Shown here: piece by piece, positions 26,842 to 31,411 of the stretch
Layout: each line of letters starts with the position of its first letter
Position numbering within the stretch: the first letter of the stretch is position 1
DNA from: Methylorubrum extorquens
GTDB lineage: Bacteria; Pseudomonadota; Alphaproteobacteria; Rhizobiales; Beijerinckiaceae
Assembly: GCF_024169925.1 (NCBI RefSeq)
Contig: NZ_JALJXF010000001.1
Span: 1,184,001-1,248,000, forward strand
Length of the DNA stretch: 64,000 nucleotides
Direction: 5' to 3'
Made by a program: the position numbers and the translations under genes
Notes under the pieces: model-generated
Told to the model about the DNA's origin: nothing
What the model saw: the letters and a program-made list of their open reading frames with translations, nothing else
The model's database searches: none

Positions 26842-28242
26842 TCACGACGTCGCGGCCTCCGCGGCGGCCTTCACCGCCCACTTCGCCGCCGCCTTGCGCT
26901 TCCACGGCGCGTCGGCCTCCCAGTCGCCGGCCATGATGCAGCCATAGGGCTCCACCGTGTCGACGACCTCGGCCAGATCGTACTTGGCGATCTGGGCACG
27001 CACCGAGGCGGCGTCCTTGTAGGCGCCCGGCAGCTCCGACAGGTCCGGCTTTCCGCAGAAGAAGCGCACGTCGATGCCCTCGGGCAAAGCGGGTGCGTTC
27101 TCGCGCAGGTAAGCCGTGCGGCTCATGTTGCGGCCCGCCCCGTGCGGGGCAAAGCCCAGCGAGGCCACTTGGTCGCGGTGGCGGGCGATCAGGATCGGCT
27201 CGGCCATGTTGAGCGGGATCAGCGTGCGCCCGTCATCGTCGGCCGAGAATCCTGCCCACGACGGGGTCGCCCCCTTACCGTGGTAGTAGAGCCCGTCGTC
27301 GCGGCGGAAGACGAAGTTGTGCTCGTTCCAGAACCGGTCCGCGACGGCATTGCCGATCCGTCGCGCCACGAGGTCGTGGAGCGCGAAATGGCTCGCCTTG
27401 GTCCAGTCCCGCACGATGTGCAGCGCCTCCCAATAGGCCCGGCCGTCATCGGATTCCGCCCGGATCCAGGCGTTGTGCGCCGGGACCCGCGGAGCAACGA
27501 TCGCCGTGTGTCGGCGAGCCACCGCCATGCCCTTCTTGTAGAGCTGCGCCCCGAGCCCGCGCGAGCCGTGATGGGTGACGAGCGCCACCTGCCCGGTCGA
27601 GGCGAGGTGCCCGACAGAGGCGAAGTGGTTGCCGTCGCCCTGGCTGGCGAAGTGCCCGACCGCGAGACCCGCGAACTCGGCGAGGAAACGGTTGCCCGCA
27701 ACCCCCGCCATCACCGCGTCCGGCGGCGCGACGGCACCCTTTCGGCCACCGGGACCGAAATGCGTGACCGCCTGCATCGCGTCGAGGACGCGCTTCGGGT
27801 CGTCGGCCCGGCGGAACACGGTGATCGCCACCGAGCAGCAGATGTCGGCCGAGTGGAAGCCCGGATGGATCGCGTCCGCGCAGGCGACTGCGCCACCCAC
27901 GGGGATCGTGCCCTCGGCAAAGCCCGAGGGGCAGGCATCCGGCATCACCGCGCCCTTGACGATGGTCGGCACCCGCATGAGCGCGTCCATATGCGCGATC
28001 ACGGCGGCCGCGTTCGCCCGCTCGGCCTCGGTCTCGGCGTCGAGGAAGACGCCGAATGCGAGGGCGTTCGTGCGCATCGGGATGACCTGGGCGGCCGGGT
28101 CGAGGGTGGCCAGATGCGCGCGGATCGCCGCGTCGTCGGCGCCCTCGAGGCGCATCGCGTTGGCGATGGAGACCGCCCGCTTGAACCATTCGCCGGGCTG
28201 GAAGCCCCAGGCGATGAGGTCGCGTCCGTTGATCGCGGTCAT
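26842..28242 (-). CDS. rtcB: RtcB-family RNA ligase
   Basis: The 466-residue RtcB starts MTAINGRDLIAWGFQPGEWF. Metal and guanylylation residues are visible: Asp133 and Cys136 in SADICCSV, GDGNHF (Asn205, His206), HHGSRG (His224, His225) and the guanylate-accepting His367 in PHGAGR. RtcB joins 2',3'-cyclic phosphate or 3'-phosphate RNA ends to 5'-OH ends using GTP and Mn2+. It follows the Ro gene by 87 bases on the same strand. No rtcA is visible. Its partner substrates may be RNAs sorted by Ro and the Y RNA-like array upstream (inference). Confidence 0.95.
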   Translation of the reverse strand: MTAINGRDLIAWGFQPGEWFKRAVSIANAMRLEGADDAAIRAHLATLDPAAQVIPMRTNALAFGVFLDAETEAERANAAAVIAHMDALMRVPTIVKGAVMPDACPSGFAEGTIPVGGAVACADAIHPGFHSADICCSVAITVFRRADDPKRVLDAMQAVTHFGPGGRKGAVAPPDAVMAGVAGNRFLAEFAGLAVGHFASQGDGNHFASVGHLASTGQVALVTHHGSRGLGAQLYKKGMAVARRHTAIVAPRVPAHNAWIRAESDDGRAYWEALHIVRDWTKASHFALHDLVARRIGNAVADRFWNEHNFVFRRDDGLYYHGKGATPSWAGFSADDDGRTLIPLNMAEPILIARHRDQVASLGFAPHGAGRNMSRTAYLRENAPALPEGIDVRFFCGKPDLSELPGAYKDAASVRAQIAKYDLAEVVDTVEPYGCIMAGDWEADAPWKRKAAAKWAVKAAAEAATS

Positions 28243-28329: not shown

Positions 28330-29937
28330 TCATTCACCGCGGATGAAATCCGCGATCAGCGCGGGCGCCGCCGTGTCGAAGCCGACGACGTCGAGCATGC
28401 CGGCGTCGTTCGGGTCGGCGATGCTGAAGCCGTTGGAGACGAGCCCCACGACCACGAGCTTGGCCGGGATCCCGGTCTTCTCCCGGTACTCCCGCAGAGC
28501 CTGGACCGGGTGGACCGGCCCCGCCCAGGTTTCCGAGTCCGTGTAGACCACGAACGCGTCGGCCTTCACGCCCCGCTCTAGCGCCCACCGCATCGGCAGC
28601 GAACAATCCGTCCCGCCGAAGGGCAGATCAGCGGTCGCCGCCACCGCTTGGTCGAGCCGCATCGACGGCCCGATCGGCAGGGCCGTGAGCGCTGCCCCCT
28701 GGCTCCAGGACTGGCCGGGCTCGGCCGTGAAGCCGAGGGTCTGCCAGTGCTCTTCGGTCGCCGCGGTGACGAGCGCCATCGCGGCGGCCGCCTCGCGGGG
28801 CGTCAGAGCGGAACCCGCAACGGATCCGCAGCTCATCGAGCCGGAGACGTCCAGCGCCAGCACGAGACGCCGGCCCGTGGGCTCGACGCCTCCGAAGGCG
28901 GTGTAGAACGCCGCGTTCAGCGCCTCGATGATGGCCGCCACCGGCTCCCAGGAGAGCCGGCCGCGCTGGCCGCGCCCGGACGCGTAGGTCCGGAGCGCCA
29001 CCAGCAGCGCCATCGGGTGCAGGCGCGCCTTCAGCAGGCGCTCCCGATCCGACAGCACGCCGACCACGTGCGCGGTCGCCGCGGTGAAGGGCGCGAGCGC
29101 CCCCGAAGCGGTGAGCCGGCCGAGCTGGCGCACGAGGGCACCGACCGGCATGCGCTCGATCAGGGCCTCGTTCACCGCGCGGCTCGTCATCAGCCCGGTC
29201 GGCAGCGCCTCCCAGGGCAGATTGTGCGTCCGCACCTGCGCCGCCGCGTAAGCGCCGTCGACGCCCTCCGCCTGTACCGAGGCGAAGGCGTGGACGAGAG
29301 CGGGGGTCTCCTCGGTCAGCGTGCCGCGGCAGATCCAGTCGAACAGCGCCTTCCGGGCCGGCTCGTCCGTCTCCGGGTGAGCCAGCCGCAGGAGGTCGCG
29401 GTGCGACCAGCCCTGGCGGGACCGGTACTTCACCGCCTGGTAGGCGAGCGCGTCCACCGGACGCGCCCGGTACCAGTCGCCGATCGCGCGCCGGAGCGCC
29501 CGGCCCCAGCCGCGCATCGCCTCGACGGCGCCCGCGAACTGGAACAGGTGCGTGCCGGTGCGGCAGACCTGCGGCAGGGCGGCGAGCGCCAGCCGGCGGG
29601 TCGCCTCGGCTTCCGCGGAGGCCGCGAGCGCCAGCGCGAAGATCGCCGGATCCTGCTTCGGCGCCCGGCCCGCCTCGCTCATCGCGACGATGACCGCGAC
29701 CGCCTGCGGACCGTCCTCGGCAATGCAGCGCATCACCGCGGCGGCGTTCTCCCGGGTCAACGCCCGCTCGCCCGCGTAGTACGAGCCGCCTTCCGAGCCG
29801 AGCACGAGGAAGCGGTCGAGCCGCGCCCAGTCGCTCAGCGCGAAGACATGGCCGCCGGCCGAATTCGGCACGGTGCGGGGAAGGGGCTCCGACTGCGGGG
29901 TGCGCCGGAGCGAGAACAGCTTTCCATAGTTCAACAT
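28330..29937 (-). CDS. rsr: Ro60/Rsr orthologue (TROVE and vWA domains)
   Basis: This 535-residue bacterial Ro protein starts MLNYGKLFSLRRTPQSEPLP after the ribosome site GAGAGGAGCGAGC. Residues up to about 350 form the TROVE HEAT-repeat ring (for example KYRSRQGWSHRDLLRLAHP, a conserved TROVE segment). The C-terminal von Willebrand A domain has an intact MIDAS: Asp363-x-Ser365-x-Ser367, Thr443 in GGTD and Asp467 in YTDSE. Ro proteins bind misfolded RNA in the ring cavity and Y RNAs on the outside, and in Deinococcus and Salmonella work with PNPase. The seven-unit Y RNA-like array lies just upstream on the same strand. Confidence 0.95.
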   Translation of the reverse strand: MLNYGKLFSLRRTPQSEPLPRTVPNSAGGHVFALSDWARLDRFLVLGSEGGSYYAGERALTRENAAAVMRCIAEDGPQAVAVIVAMSEAGRAPKQDPAIFALALAASAEAEATRRLALAALPQVCRTGTHLFQFAGAVEAMRGWGRALRRAIGDWYRARPVDALAYQAVKYRSRQGWSHRDLLRLAHPETDEPARKALFDWICRGTLTEETPALVHAFASVQAEGVDGAYAAAQVRTHNLPWEALPTGLMTSRAVNEALIERMPVGALVRQLGRLTASGALAPFTAATAHVVGVLSDRERLLKARLHPMALLVALRTYASGRGQRGRLSWEPVAAIIEALNAAFYTAFGGVEPTGRRLVLALDVSGSMSCGSVAGSALTPREAAAAMALVTAATEEHWQTLGFTAEPGQSWSQGAALTALPIGPSMRLDQAVAATADLPFGGTDCSLPMRWALERGVKADAFVVYTDSETWAGPVHPVQALREYREKTGIPAKLVVVGLVSNGFSIADPNDAGMLDVVGFDTAAPALIADFIRGE

Positions 29938-29989: not shown

Positions 29990-30097
29990 TGCGGCGCGCG
30001 GTCGTGAGTCGTGCGAGGGATTCCGGCGCCTTGCGGCGCCTGGGATTCGAACCCTAGGACCAGATCACCCTCGCAATCCGGCCCGCGCGGCCGAATT
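29990..30097 (-). ncRNA. Y RNA-like unit 1 (nearest Ro), with T-arm
   Basis: The 5' strand reads GCGGGCCGGAUUGCGAGGG then UGAUC. GCGAGGG (30013-30019) pairs with CCCTCGC (30068-30074). An outer GC-rich stem (29991-30003 with 30079-30092, one gap and a GU pair) is separated from it by a 9-base bulge on the 3' side. The apical module has a T-arm (30042-30054, loop containing TTCGAA) and the hairpin GGCGCC-GCAA-GGCGCC. It ends 54 bases before the Ro start codon. Confidence 0.65.
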
Positions 30098-30112
30098 CGT
30101 TTGTTCCGTCAG

Positions 30113-30263
30113 CGGCCGTGCGGGCATGGAGGGGAGACAGGAGGTCCGCTCGCGCGGCGTGCGTTGCCCGTCCGCCACCCGGGCATCGGACCTCGCGGCC
30201 CGTGGGATTCGAACCCGGCCTTTCGGCCAACGATCACCTGTCTCCATCGGCCCGCACGGCCGA
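30113..30263 (-). ncRNA. Y RNA-like unit 2, with T-arm, 7-bp stem and D-like arm
   Basis: The outer stem is 13 perfect pairs (30113-30125 with 30250-30262) and the inner stem 9 pairs (30133-30141 with 30237-30245). They are separated by an asymmetric loop (7 bases on the 3' side, 4 on the 5' side), the Ro-binding layout of Y RNAs. The apical part holds a GAAA-capped hairpin, a T-arm (30204-30216), and a 7-bp acceptor-like stem (30142-30148 with 30187-30193) enclosing a D-like arm with GG in its loop (30166-30184). The conserved GGUGAUC follows the inner 5' strand. Confidence 0.78.
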
Positions 30264-30312
30264 TATCTTTGTCGTTCTGCGCCCCTCGGGCGGACGAACG
30301 TCCGGCCTGAAG

Positions 30313-30388
30313 CAGCGCGGTCATGGTGTGAGGAAAGGGGCGCTCTACCCGACTGAGCTACGGACCTTCCCTCTTCGGACCGAGCAAT
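30313..30388 (-). ncRNA. Y RNA-like unit 3, minimal, D-arm only
   Basis: The 5' strand starts CGGUCCGAAGAGGGAAGG, very close to the GGUCCGAAGGUAGUG start of human Y1. CGGTC (30318-30322) pairs with GACCG (30378-30382), GAGGAAAGG (30330-30338) pairs with CCTTCCCTC (30365-30373, one GU), and the 3'-side bulge has seven bases. The apical module is just a tRNA D-arm, GCUCAGUCGGGUAGAGC (30342-30358). This could be mistaken for the 5' half of a broken tRNA gene. Confidence 0.65.
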
Positions 30389-30414
30389 TTGAATAATTTC
30401 CTACAACTCAGCCG

Positions 30415-30556
30415 CGAAAAATCCTGCGGTCGTGGATGTCAGGGACGGGTTTGCTGAGCTACGGGTGTCATGCCCGGCGACAATCGAATTCGCGACCTCC
30501 GCGGCGTGTGCCGCGGCGCTCTACCGATAACCGTCCCCGTTCGGCCCGCAGGGGCC
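30415..30556 (-). ncRNA. Y RNA-like unit 4, circularly permuted tRNA module
   Basis: The Ro-type stem is CCTGCGG (30423-30429) with CCGCAGG (30546-30552) and GGGACGG (30442-30448) with CCGTCCC (30531-30537), with a 12-base bulge on the 3' side. In RNA order the module runs: D-arm 3' strand GGUAGAGC (30525-30518), anticodon-position hairpin (30516-30499), T-arm GCGAA-UUCGAUU-GUCGC (30493-30477), closed acceptor-like hairpin CGGG/CCCG (30476-30462), D-arm 5' strand UAGCUC. This is a whole tRNA shape opened in the D-loop. Five U residues (30421-30417) directly follow, suggesting a terminator-like 3' end. Confidence 0.78.
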
Positions 30557-30596
30557 GCCGGGATGGGGAGTGGGGGATTGTGGCCGCGCCGGAACG

Positions 30597-30720
30597 GCGG
30601 CCACGCGGGCATGGGGGTGCGAACGGGAATGTCCTTTCGGACAACCGCGCCGTCCGCCCGAGGGCATCTGGCATTCGATTCCCTGAGATAACCGTCCGCT
30701 ATCGGCCCGCGTGGCCGACC
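30597..30720 (-). ncRNA. Y RNA-like unit 5, with T-like arm
   Basis: The outer stem is 13 perfect pairs (30598-30610 with 30705-30717) and the inner stem 8 pairs with one GU (30619-30626 with 30692-30699), with an 8-base bulge ATGGGGGT on the 3' side. The 5' strand includes GCGGGCCGAUAGCGGACGG then UUAUC, the best match to the shared pattern. The module has a T-like loop (AUCGAAU, about 30669-30684) and the hairpin GUCC-GAAA-GGAC (30631-30642). Confidence 0.75.
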
Positions 30721-30842
30721 GTCTCTCGTGTGGTCGGATACGAGCACATCGCCCTTGGCCGCTCAGACCCTGGACGGGCGAAAGCGGCGACGCGGTGATC
30801 GTCGTGTTTCATGCCTTGCTCCGTCGAGGCGGGGCCAATGGG

Positions 30843-30918
30843 AAGCGCGGACGTGTAAACGGGCGATCGGGGCTTCACGGGATAGGTGATAACCGATGCC
30901 AACCGGCCCGCGCCGGTG
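30843..30918 (-). ncRNA. Y RNA-like unit 6, small
   Basis: GCGCGG (30845-30850) pairs with CCGCGC (30908-30913). GGC plus ATCGG (30862-30870, one bulged G) pairs with CCGAT plus GCC (30893-30900). The 11-base 3' bulge ACGTGTAAACG separates the stems. The 5' strand carries GCGGGCCGGUUGGCAUCGG then UUAUC. The loop of about 22 bases has no clear tRNA arm. Support comes mainly from the conserved 5' strand and position in the array. Confidence 0.55.
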
Positions 30919-30933
30919 ATGATGTTCGAGCTG

Positions 30934-31020
30934 TGAGCCGGATGTGGGTGCGAGGGAGCGGAAGCTTTCCCGTACGGGTTAAGAGGTAACGCTCGATCTC
31001 TGGCCCGGCTGAGCCGATAG
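30934..31020 (-). ncRNA. Y RNA-like unit 7, first unit after the promoter
   Basis: AGCCGG (30936-30941) pairs with CCGGCT (31005-31010) and GAGCG (30956-30960) with CGCTC (30990-30994), with a long 3'-side bulge. The 5' strand reads AGCCGGGCCAGAGAUCGAGC then GUUACC, a diverged form of the shared pattern. The loop contains CCCGUACGGG, a self-pairing segment. It begins about five bases after the proposed -10 box. It is the least conserved unit. Confidence 0.55.
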
Positions 31021-31024
31021 GTTG

Positions 31025-31053
31025 TGCTTACGGTTGCACCCGGACTGCGTCAA
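31025..31053 (-). promoter_or_regulatory. Sigma70-like promoter of the Y RNA-like array
   Basis: On the minus strand TTGACG (31053-31048) is followed, after exactly 17 bases, by TAAGCA (31030-31025), and the RNA of unit 7 would begin near 31020. The -35 box is near consensus; the -10 box is weak. Confidence 0.5.
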
Positions 31054-31096
31054 CCCGAAACTTGAAAATTCTTTCAGCTTCACGCATCTCCCATCC

Positions 31097-31411
31097 ATGA
31101 ACCCATCCGCCATCACACCCGCCCAGATCCGCGCCGGCCGCGGCCTTCTCAAATGGACGCAAGGCGTTCTGGCCAGTCGCGCCGCGGTCTCGGTCGTGAC
31201 CCTGAACATGATCGAGAGCGATCAGGTCGCCCCGCGCGCAAGGACCCTCGACGCGATCCGCACGGTGCTTGAAGGCGAGGGCATCCGCTTCATCGGCGAC
31301 GCGAGCGAAGGCTTCGGGGTGATGATGCGGCCGGGGCAAGGGGCACAACAAGCATCACAACTGGGGCCGAAGCCGGGGAAGACGTCGAGATCCATGCGGG
31401 CCGCCGAGTGA
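31097..31411 (+). CDS. XRE-family helix-turn-helix regulator
   Basis: The 104-residue protein starts MNPSAITPAQIRAGRGLLKW. The first 65 residues form an XRE helix-turn-helix (QIRAGRGLLKWTQGVLAS, then IESDQVAPRARTLDAIRTVL) of the short type common in alphaproteobacteria; the tail is low complexity. Its stop overlaps the pxpA start (GTGA), so they are co-transcribed. It is divergent from the Y RNA-like array and only about 75 bases from its first unit, so it could regulate that promoter (inference). Confidence 0.85.
   Translation: MNPSAITPAQIRAGRGLLKWTQGVLASRAAVSVVTLNMIESDQVAPRARTLDAIRTVLEGEGIRFIGDASEGFGVMMRPGQGAQQASQLGPKPGKTSRSMRAAE

What the first reader, a model, noticed from the sequence alone, without database searches (positions are those of the whole stretch)
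29990..31020. Seven-unit tandem array of Y RNA-like genes directly upstream of Ro (rsr) and rtcB
Seen: seven segments on the Ro strand each fold as two short helices separated by an asymmetric loop with the larger bulge on the 3' strand. In most the 5' strand carries GGGCCGA or GGGCCGG, then GGUUAUC or GGUGAUC. Known: Y RNAs bind Ro through a stem with a 3' bulge, and vertebrate Y1 starts GGCUGGUCCGAAGGUAGUG then AGUUAUC. Known bacterial loci carry one or a few Y RNAs near rsr. Inference: this is an expanded Y RNA family giving Ro several interchangeable effector modules, next to an RNA ligase.
Basis: partly seen in the sequence, partly recalled or inferred. Interest (0 to 1): 0.95.

Follow-up and report, generated by a model that had tools for sequence, protein, structure and literature searches.

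The report
Seven Y RNAs carrying varied tRNA look-alikes
Beside the gene for the RNA-binding protein Ro, this bacterium has a row of seven likely Y RNA genes; they share a predicted Ro-docking stem but carry different add-on pieces, several of them resembling transfer RNA cut open at different points, which would let one protein reach several tRNA-handling partners.

Summary
Upstream of Ro (28330..29937 -) seven segments on the Ro strand share a Y-type stem (GGGCCGA/G ... GGUUAUC, larger loop on the 3' side). Orthologous arrays lie beside Ro in 29 genomes of the genus, own included; at a strict cut a stem detector finds 110 units on the Ro strand of these and none on the other. Covariation scores are reached by 0 of 500 shuffles in units 2, 4, 5, 6 and 7; units 1 and 3 have weak or no such support.

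Unit 4 is a four-arm tRNA-like fold opened in the D loop. Unit 5 is YrlA-type (opened in the anticodon arm), but here it has lost its T arm and acceptor. Unit 6 is leucine-like with a variable arm. Unit 7 is a T arm plus acceptor hairpin. Chloroflexi loci carry arrays with Thr-, Lys/Met-, Tyr- and weakly Ser-like modules, and the D-loop opening recurs beside two other TROVE families. Transcription, Ro binding and partners are untested. RtcB adjoins Ro in 12 of 29 loci. Verdict: a new variant of bacterial Y RNAs, a panel of different tRNA mimics serving one Ro.

The parts
28330..29937 (-). Ro60 orthologue (rsr), 535 aa, TROVE + vWA
   Evidence: NCBIfam Rsr 526.9 bits, below its cut-off of 900
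26842..28242 (-). divergent RtcB-type RNA ligase, 466 aa; sequence reads PHGAGR where the RtcB chains read CHGAGR
30936..31010 (-). Unit 1: Y-type stem, short hairpin, no tRNA module
   Evidence: coordinates; orthologues found by scan at low cut in L008, L010, L029; alignment A9, weak covariation
30844..30914 (-). Unit 2: minimal Y RNA, 22-nt inner region
   Evidence: alignment A7 of 26 loci; orthologues in L020 and L024 score below the cut of the nematode family RF01656
30598..30717 (-). Unit 3: 13 + 8 bp Y stem, module with hairpins, no tRNA similarity above shuffles
30423..30552 (-). Unit 4: Y stem closing a four-arm tRNA-like module opened in the D loop (GGUAGAGC ... anticodon-like stem ... 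AGGUC ... T arm ... acceptor hairpin ... UAGCUCAG)
   Evidence: model R1, 83.7 bits at 30448-30531; this copy was in the model's alignment
30315..30385 (-). Unit 5: YrlA-type Y RNA reduced here to the D arm; T arm and acceptor apparently lost between AAGGT repeats
30113..30262 (-). Unit 6: type II (Leu-like) tRNA mimic: variable arm, T arm, acceptor hairpin, D-like arm, extra hairpin
29995..30089 (-). Unit 7: T arm plus acceptor hairpin only
31048..31053 (-). conserved TTGACG, -35-like, 17 nt before TAAGCA (31025-31030); predicted promoter of the array
   Evidence: TCAAGTTT-N4-TTGAC in 29 of 29 loci; the automatic sigma-70 scan found none
31058..31080 (.). imperfect palindrome AAGCTGAAAGAATTTTCAAGTTT, possible operator
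   Evidence: function inferred
31098..31411 (+). divergent HTH_3 regulator gene flanking the array in 29 loci (ATG start read from the sequence)

Best explanation
The stretch upstream of Ro is a row of seven likely Y RNA genes on the Ro strand, which share a predicted Ro-binding stem and differ in the module that the stem carries. Several modules (units 4, 5, 6 and 7) resemble tRNA parts in rotated order; units 1, 2 and 3 show no tRNA likeness. Inferred working: the array is transcribed from a conserved promoter-like site in front of unit 1, cut into single RNAs, and each RNA docks on Ro through the stem. The tRNA-like modules then present a tRNA elbow to enzymes that handle tRNA, such as the exonuclease PNPase (the known partner of the Ro-Y RNA complex in Deinococcus), tRNA modification enzymes, and perhaps the neighbouring RtcB. 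Because the modules imitate different tRNA types and are opened at different points, each Ro-Y RNA complex would meet a different partner or substrate set. Shown here: stem, motif, synteny, covariation, tRNA likeness, recurrence in other phyla and other TROVE families. Not shown: transcripts, processing, Ro binding, partners.
For: Y-type motif exact in five of seven units, strand specificity 110:0 in 29 loci, 4 of 5 window-wide hits in the array. Covariation scores reached by 0/500 shuffles in units 4, 5, 6, 7, 2. The Rfam YrlA model finds unit 5 of relatives at 39-55 bits in 12 of the 13 loci given to it (best E 7.7e-10; the own locus is the one without). Genus-wide, hits of 36.5 bits or more occur in 26 genomes, all among the 30 with a Ro match and none of the 81 without (cut chosen after seeing the list, the next hit is 36.0 in a genome without Ro). 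Against the 40 distinct tRNA sequences of the own genome, doubled modules score 66-86 (unit 5, nine loci), 49-65 (unit 4, ten), 41-49 (unit 6, Leu best in 4 of 4), 36-43 (unit 7, five), shuffled maxima 31-45 with 20 shuffles each. In 80 named Ro loci, 57 rotated tRNA modules lie on the Ro strand, 0 on the other, 0 in one shuffle of each stretch (12 of the 57 are from six loci of this genus, and one, L075, I later judged a tRNA gene). Chloroflexi modules: Thr 72, Lys 57-72, Met 67, Tyr 72 and 87, Ser 42, shuffled maxima 35-48.
Against: No expression or binding data. The YrlA curated score (69) is reached nowhere. The D stem of unit 4 never varies in the 25 aligned loci, so within the genus it has no covariation support, RNAalifold draws another pairing there, and L011 breaks one of its pairs. 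Unit 5 is broken in this genome; unit 3 shows no tRNA likeness and covariation for units 1 and 3 is weak or absent. L029 keeps the array but only about 124 residues of Ro. Likeness of units 6 and 7 to tRNA is modest: two of four unit-6 and one of five unit-7 scores do not exceed their shuffled maximum, and the variable arm of unit 6 has no two-sided change.
Confidence: 0.7

Rival explanations
1. Decoy panel: the tRNA-like modules are baits that soak up enzymes which cut tRNA (anticodon nucleases, phage or toxin RNases), and RtcB reseals what was cut.
For: Different tRNA types are imitated; own unit 4 has an anticodon-like stem closed by 4 nt instead of a 7-nt anticodon loop (sequence); the Salmonella paper itself raises YrlA as a competitive inhibitor of an anticodon nuclease (PMC7790460, passages); RtcB beside Ro in 12 of 29 loci.
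Against: No module of the own array keeps a 7-nt anticodon loop by my reading, the part such nucleases recognise; arrays exist without RtcB nearby; no such nuclease was looked for.
Confidence: 0.2
2. Array in decay: one or two units work and the rest are drifting duplicates.
For: Unit 5 has lost its T arm and acceptor in this genome; units 1 and 3 show little covariation; unit content differs between loci.
Against: Stems are kept by compensating changes in units 2, 4, 5, 6, 7; unit 4 is kept in 28 of 29 loci.
Confidence: 0.25
3. Structured 5' leader of the rsr mRNA rather than separate Y RNAs.
For: The terminator scan finds none on the Ro strand in the array; unit 7 ends 57 nt before the Ro start codon.
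Against: In the Chloroflexi loci most units lie downstream of Ro; the stems carry the Y RNA motif.
Confidence: 0.12
4. A cluster of pseudo-tRNA genes or attachment sites unrelated to Ro.
For: Clear T-arm and D-arm words in several units.
Against: ARAGORN finds no tRNA in the window; rotated order, Y stem, one strand only, beside Ro.
Confidence: 0.02

Closest known systems
YrlA RNA (Rfam RF02553), e.g. Salmonella, structure 6CU1
   Same: Unit 5 in relatives: T arm, acceptor closed by a loop, then D arm, inside a Ro-binding stem; best E 7.7e-10. Circular permutation of 6CU1 relative to tRNA is published (passages of PMC11472068).
   Different: Below the curated cut-off; the outer stem carries GGGCCGA..GGUUAUC, not the CgaAUGC..GgaaCUA of the YrlA consensus printed; own unit 5 is truncated; units 4, 6 and 7 have other layouts.
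Y RNA of Deinococcus and the RYPER complex (Rsr, Y RNA, PNPase)
   Same: Ro orthologue with a neighbouring RNA that has a lower Ro-binding stem and an effector module (PMC4726728 and PMC8394870, passages).
   Different: Seven RNAs for one Ro; PNPase link not tested here.
Vertebrate Y RNAs and nematode sbRNAs
   Same: 5' motif resembling GGNCCGA ...
   Different: No Rfam hit at gathering score in the window; tRNA modules have no animal counterpart known to me.
rsr-yrlBA-rtcBA RNA repair operon of Salmonella
   Same: Ro, Y RNAs and RtcB together (PMC7790460, passages).
   Different: None of the six neighbouring ORFs given to Pfam is RtcA or RtcR; RtcB is divergent and not found whole beside Ro in 17 of 29 loci.

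Membership tests
bacterial Y RNA | encoded next to a Ro orthologue | tested here: met
   stretch between Ro and HTH gene in 29 loci (Ro truncated in L029)
bacterial Y RNA | lower stem with larger loop on the 3' strand and conserved 5' motif | tested here: met
   units 1 and 2 only with lower scores, own unit 5 by geometry only
bacterial Y RNA | stem kept by compensating changes | tested here: met
   units 2, 4, 5, 6, 7; unit 1 weak, unit 3 not
bacterial Y RNA | stable transcript bound by Ro | not testable with these tools
   needs RNA and pull-down
YrlA (RF02553) | T arm - closed acceptor - D arm inside a Ro stem | tested here: met
   unit 5 of relatives; own unit 5 has only the D arm
YrlA (RF02553) | Rfam gathering score of 69 bits | tested here: not met
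   best 58.2 in 111 genomes; no hit in the window
YrlA (RF02553) | YrlA-type outer stem sequence | tested here: not met
   in the three alignments printed much of the outer stem is mismatched against the model
metazoan Y RNA (Rfam) | Rfam match at gathering score | tested here: not met
   0 matches
tRNA gene | ARAGORN call | tested here: not met
   0 genes
Ro60 / Rsr | TROVE and vWA_Ro60 domains | tested here: met
Ro60 / Rsr | NCBIfam NF041674 cut-off 900 | tested here: not met
   526.9 bits, residues 3-535
RtcB | Pfam RtcB over cut-off | tested here: met
   101.2 bits, cut 27
RtcB | RNA ligase activity | not testable with these tools
   divergent; PHGAGR motif seen in sequence

The most novel reading that the evidence does not exclude
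One Ro protein is served by a panel of Y RNAs whose modules were captured from different tRNA types (Asp/Ala-like, Thr/Arg-like, type II Leu-like, and a T-arm/acceptor half) and inserted at different rotation points: the anticodon arm (known, YrlA), the D loop (unit 4), and the border between anticodon and variable arms (unit 6). The same idea recurs in Chloroflexi (Tyr, Thr, Lys/Met, weakly Ser-like) and, for the D-loop opening, beside two other TROVE families, so Ro systems would present sets of tRNA surrogates that sort tRNA-handling enzymes or damaged tRNAs by type.
Probability: 0.5. Interest if true: 0.85.

Novelty: new variant of a known kind. Interest (0 to 1): 0.72.

Why it matters
The tRNA-like module with a structure cited in what I could read is YrlA (6CU1). 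A set of different tRNA mimics for one Ro makes the open question of what the tRNA domain is for directly testable: swap or delete single units and see which enzyme or which tRNA is affected. Unit 4 is a four-arm tRNA-like fold opened at a loop that keeps the D-loop and T-loop letters, a natural test of how much of tRNA a modification enzyme needs. Methylobacterium laboratory strains can be grown and gene-deleted easily (recalled).

Tried and rejected
Structure-only counting of units: not far above shuffles in this GC-rich stretch, so the motif, orthologues and covariation carry the claim. A loose anchored scan of the window gave 68 + 85 hits and is useless at that cut. Rfam at permissive E-values on the array alone gave five chance-like families. 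D-loop-type calls in L075, L103 and L127 were judged tRNA genes (L127 by reading its CCA end) and those in L098, L100, L102, L105 anticodon-type modules mis-scored; all were dropped, as were the 5 on the opposite strand, which shows that the detector at score 50 has a background (16 against 5). Model R1 gives matches at E 0.001 in 240 of 385 genomes of the class; most listed are at the level of real tRNAs (a tRNA-Ala of the own genome scores 39.2), so I count only hits above 50 bits, or lower ones beside a TROVE gene that I read by eye: L317 40.4 bits and two L045 copies at 32 bits, which rest on that reading. Rotating unit 4 and running ARAGORN: the script failed; comparison of doubled modules with tRNAs took its place. 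Coding test of the small ORF between units 2 and 3: start, GGAG-like site and frame kept in 28 of 29 loci, but differences per codon position 0.28/0.25/0.33 give little coding signal. Key papers on bacterial Y RNAs are not held: Chen 2014, Sim and Wolin 2018 (19, 110), Wang 2018 (one search used a wrong DOI, another the right PMC id), Sim 2020 (105), Chen 2013 (111), and a 2016 review by a DOI recalled (94). So I cannot say that D-loop permutation, type II modules or long arrays are unpublished; the rows listed by searches show no paper on them.

Full report
What is there. The window is part of a genome whose close relatives are named Methylobacterium or Methylorubrum (G000:C1:1184001-1248000; names). 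Ro (28330..29937, minus) has both Ro60 domains and matches RO60 (9nen) and Rsr (2nvo; Deinococcus by recall) of the PDB about equally, 403 and 399 bits. An RtcB-type ligase follows it (26842..28242). The 1.1 kb between Ro and a divergent HTH gene holds the array. Of 111 genomes of the genus, 30 have a Ro match, own included; 29 of these loci keep the HTH gene and give a stretch to compare; L030, with Ro fragments only, was dropped. L029 has a truncated Ro but was kept.

The shared stem. Five own units show GGCCGA/G ... GGUUAUC or GGUGAUC. The layout is a lower helix ending in GGGC, a short 5' loop CGA/CGG, an upper helix of 8-9 bp, then UUAUC or UGAUC, with a longer 3' loop ending in CAU/CAC before the lower helix closes. 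Counting by geometry alone is not convincing. With the motif, cut 42 gives 110 units on the Ro strand of 29 loci and 0 on the other strand, and in 80 named loci 81 against 1 upstream and 29 against 0 downstream of Ro; six of those 80 (L055-L060) are loci of this genus with 22 of the 81. In the whole window it gives 5 hits, 4 in the array. At this cut the own array shows units 3, 4, 6 and 7; unit 2 scores 32.5, unit 5 39 by geometry, and unit 1 is seen through orthologues.

Covariation. Unit 4, 25 loci: 94.5% of cells paired, 8 pairs changed on both sides, score reached by 0/500 shuffles. Unit 5, 20 loci (own absent): 93.3%, 9 pairs, 0/500. Unit 6, 12 loci: 97.1%, 6 pairs, 0/500. Unit 7, 10 loci: 88.5%, 7 pairs, 0/500. 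Unit 2, 26 loci (23 distinct): 94.0%, score 0/500, but two-sided pairs reached by 90/500. Unit 1, 9 loci: score 27/500. Unit 3, 14 loci: 134/500. The measure 'further pair types' is not exceptional for units 5, 6, 7 and 2 (43, 103, 116, 500 of 500). These shuffles ignore relatedness and so overstate significance; sliding the partners by 1-3 columns drops pairing to 27-58% in all seven alignments.

The modules. In relatives, unit 5 reads T arm, acceptor hairpin, UA, D arm: the order of YrlA. The Rfam YrlA model agrees at 39 bits or more in 12 of the 13 loci given to it; the thirteenth is the own locus. In the own genome the stretch between two AAGGT words is missing, leaving a D arm on a Y stem (deletion inferred by comparison with seven relatives printed there). 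Unit 4 reads GGUAGAGC, one base, an anticodon-like stem, AGGUC, T arm with a 7-nt loop, acceptor hairpin, UA, GCUCAG: all four arms of tRNA with tRNA spacing, opened inside the D loop. It is present in 28 of 29 loci (25 by pattern; L009, L011 and L018 by model R1; in L027 the only R1 hit, 44.4 bits, is its unit 5). L018 has a roughly 100-nt insertion in its acceptor loop. Because GAGC/GCUC never changes in the 25 aligned loci, the D stem there rests on register and letters; RNAalifold prefers another pairing and L011 breaks one pair. Outside the genus I read the same order in L069 (59.4 bits), L316 (62.3), L317 (40.4) and twice in L045 (32.3 and 31.9, the level of ordinary tRNA hits); one L045 copy has AAGC with GCUU, a two-sided change in that D stem. 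Unit 6 has a variable-arm hairpin, a 3-bp T stem with its loop, an acceptor hairpin, a D-like arm GCCCG/CGGGC, and a further hairpin; two-sided changes are seen in the upper stem, acceptor, D-like arm and last hairpin, not in the variable arm. Unit 7 has only T arm and acceptor hairpin.

Which tRNA. Modules of ten loci were doubled and aligned to the 40 distinct tRNA sequences read from the own genome, with 20 shuffles each. Unit 5 (nine loci; own not included): 66-86, best isotype Thr, Arg, Asp, Gly, Lys or Asn by locus, so type I in general. Unit 4 (ten): 49-65, Asp best or joint best in all ten, Ala(CGC) second or tied in six. Unit 6 (four): 41-49, Leu best in 4 of 4, above the shuffled maximum in two. 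Unit 7 (five): 36-43, Lys best in four and Pro in one, above the shuffled maximum in four. Shuffled maxima run from 31 to 45 across modules. Units 1 and 3 are at noise.

Elsewhere. In the 80 named loci (2.5 kb on each side of Ro) 57 rotated modules lie on the Ro strand, none on the other, none in one shuffle of each stretch. Twelve of the 57 come from six loci of this genus, and L075's I later judged a tRNA gene. Chloroflexi loci L097, L098, L100 and L102 carry 6-9 units by the scan at cut 36, most downstream of Ro. Against the 43 sequences that ARAGORN reads for the L097 genome, 12 modules of L097 and L098 were compared (60 shuffles each): Thr 72; Lys 57, 68 (tied with Asn) and 72; Met 67; Tyr 72 and 87 (next isotype 49 and 52); Ser 42 (Asn 40); four at noise; shuffled maxima 35-48. 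So panels of different tRNA mimics exist beyond this genus. Beside two other TROVE families the outer stem has other letters: GGCGAAUGC ... GGAACUAC near the MANK-type proteins, as in the YrlA consensus, and GGUGGUGAAGAU ... UGUUACUUCG near a 441-aa family, where L316 has an array with both the D-loop and the anticodon opening followed by TROVE and RtcB genes.

RtcB. With about 1.5 kb of flank, a whole RtcB is found next to Ro in 12 of 29 loci and remnants in L010; in L022 and L023 the contig ends within 1 kb. A search of 111 genomes finds some match in 25, including 69-70% copies in genomes without a Ro match. The array does not need it nearby.

How it would work. Established for relatives: Rsr binds the Y stem, and in Deinococcus the Y RNA tethers Rsr to PNPase (PMC4726728, PMC8394870, passages read); YrlA is a substrate of DusA and TruB (PMC8394870); in Salmonella Ro, Y RNAs and RtcB sit in one operon switched on by damaged tRNAs (PMC7790460, passages). 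Inference for this locus: one promoter in front of unit 1 (TCAAGTTT-N4-TTGAC in 29 of 29 loci, though the sigma-70 scan does not call it), processing into single RNAs, and sorting of partners by module.

Verdict.

Noticed in passing
window 30699-30812 (-): Small ORF between units 2 and 3 (MKHDD..VAAFARPG.., 37 aa) with a GGAG site; start and frame kept in 28 of 29 loci, its stop lying in unit 3 here; codon-position test gives little coding signal.
   Followed up: partly
window 30315-30385: Unit 5 of this genome lacks T arm and acceptor, apparently by a deletion between AAGGT repeats; seven relatives printed keep them.
   Followed up: yes
L029 1354-1776: Genome G043 keeps the array and an RtcB but only about 124 residues of Ro.
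   Followed up: no
L018 1072-1263: Unit 4 with a roughly 100-nt insertion containing inverted repeats in the acceptor loop.
   Followed up: no
L316 3010-3401, L317 3437-3517: A 441-aa TROVE family with its own stem motif (GGUGGUGAAGAU..UGUUACUUCG), tRNA-like RNAs upstream and RtcB downstream.
   Followed up: partly
L045, L046, L047, L048, L049, L051: MANK-type TROVE genes with YrlA-like RNAs within about 0.8 kb downstream; L045 has two that I read as D-loop-opened.
   Followed up: partly
window 31058-31080: Palindrome between the array promoter and the HTH gene, possibly the regulator's operator.
   Followed up: no
L213, L135, L178, L196, L203: Viral contigs with Ro carry 3-6 Y-stem hits on the Ro strand; totals over 80 viral loci 42 against 2 on the other strand.
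   Followed up: no
L024 419-489, L020 495-565: Unit 2 orthologues score 32-33 bits with the nematode family RF01656 (cut 38).
   Followed up: no
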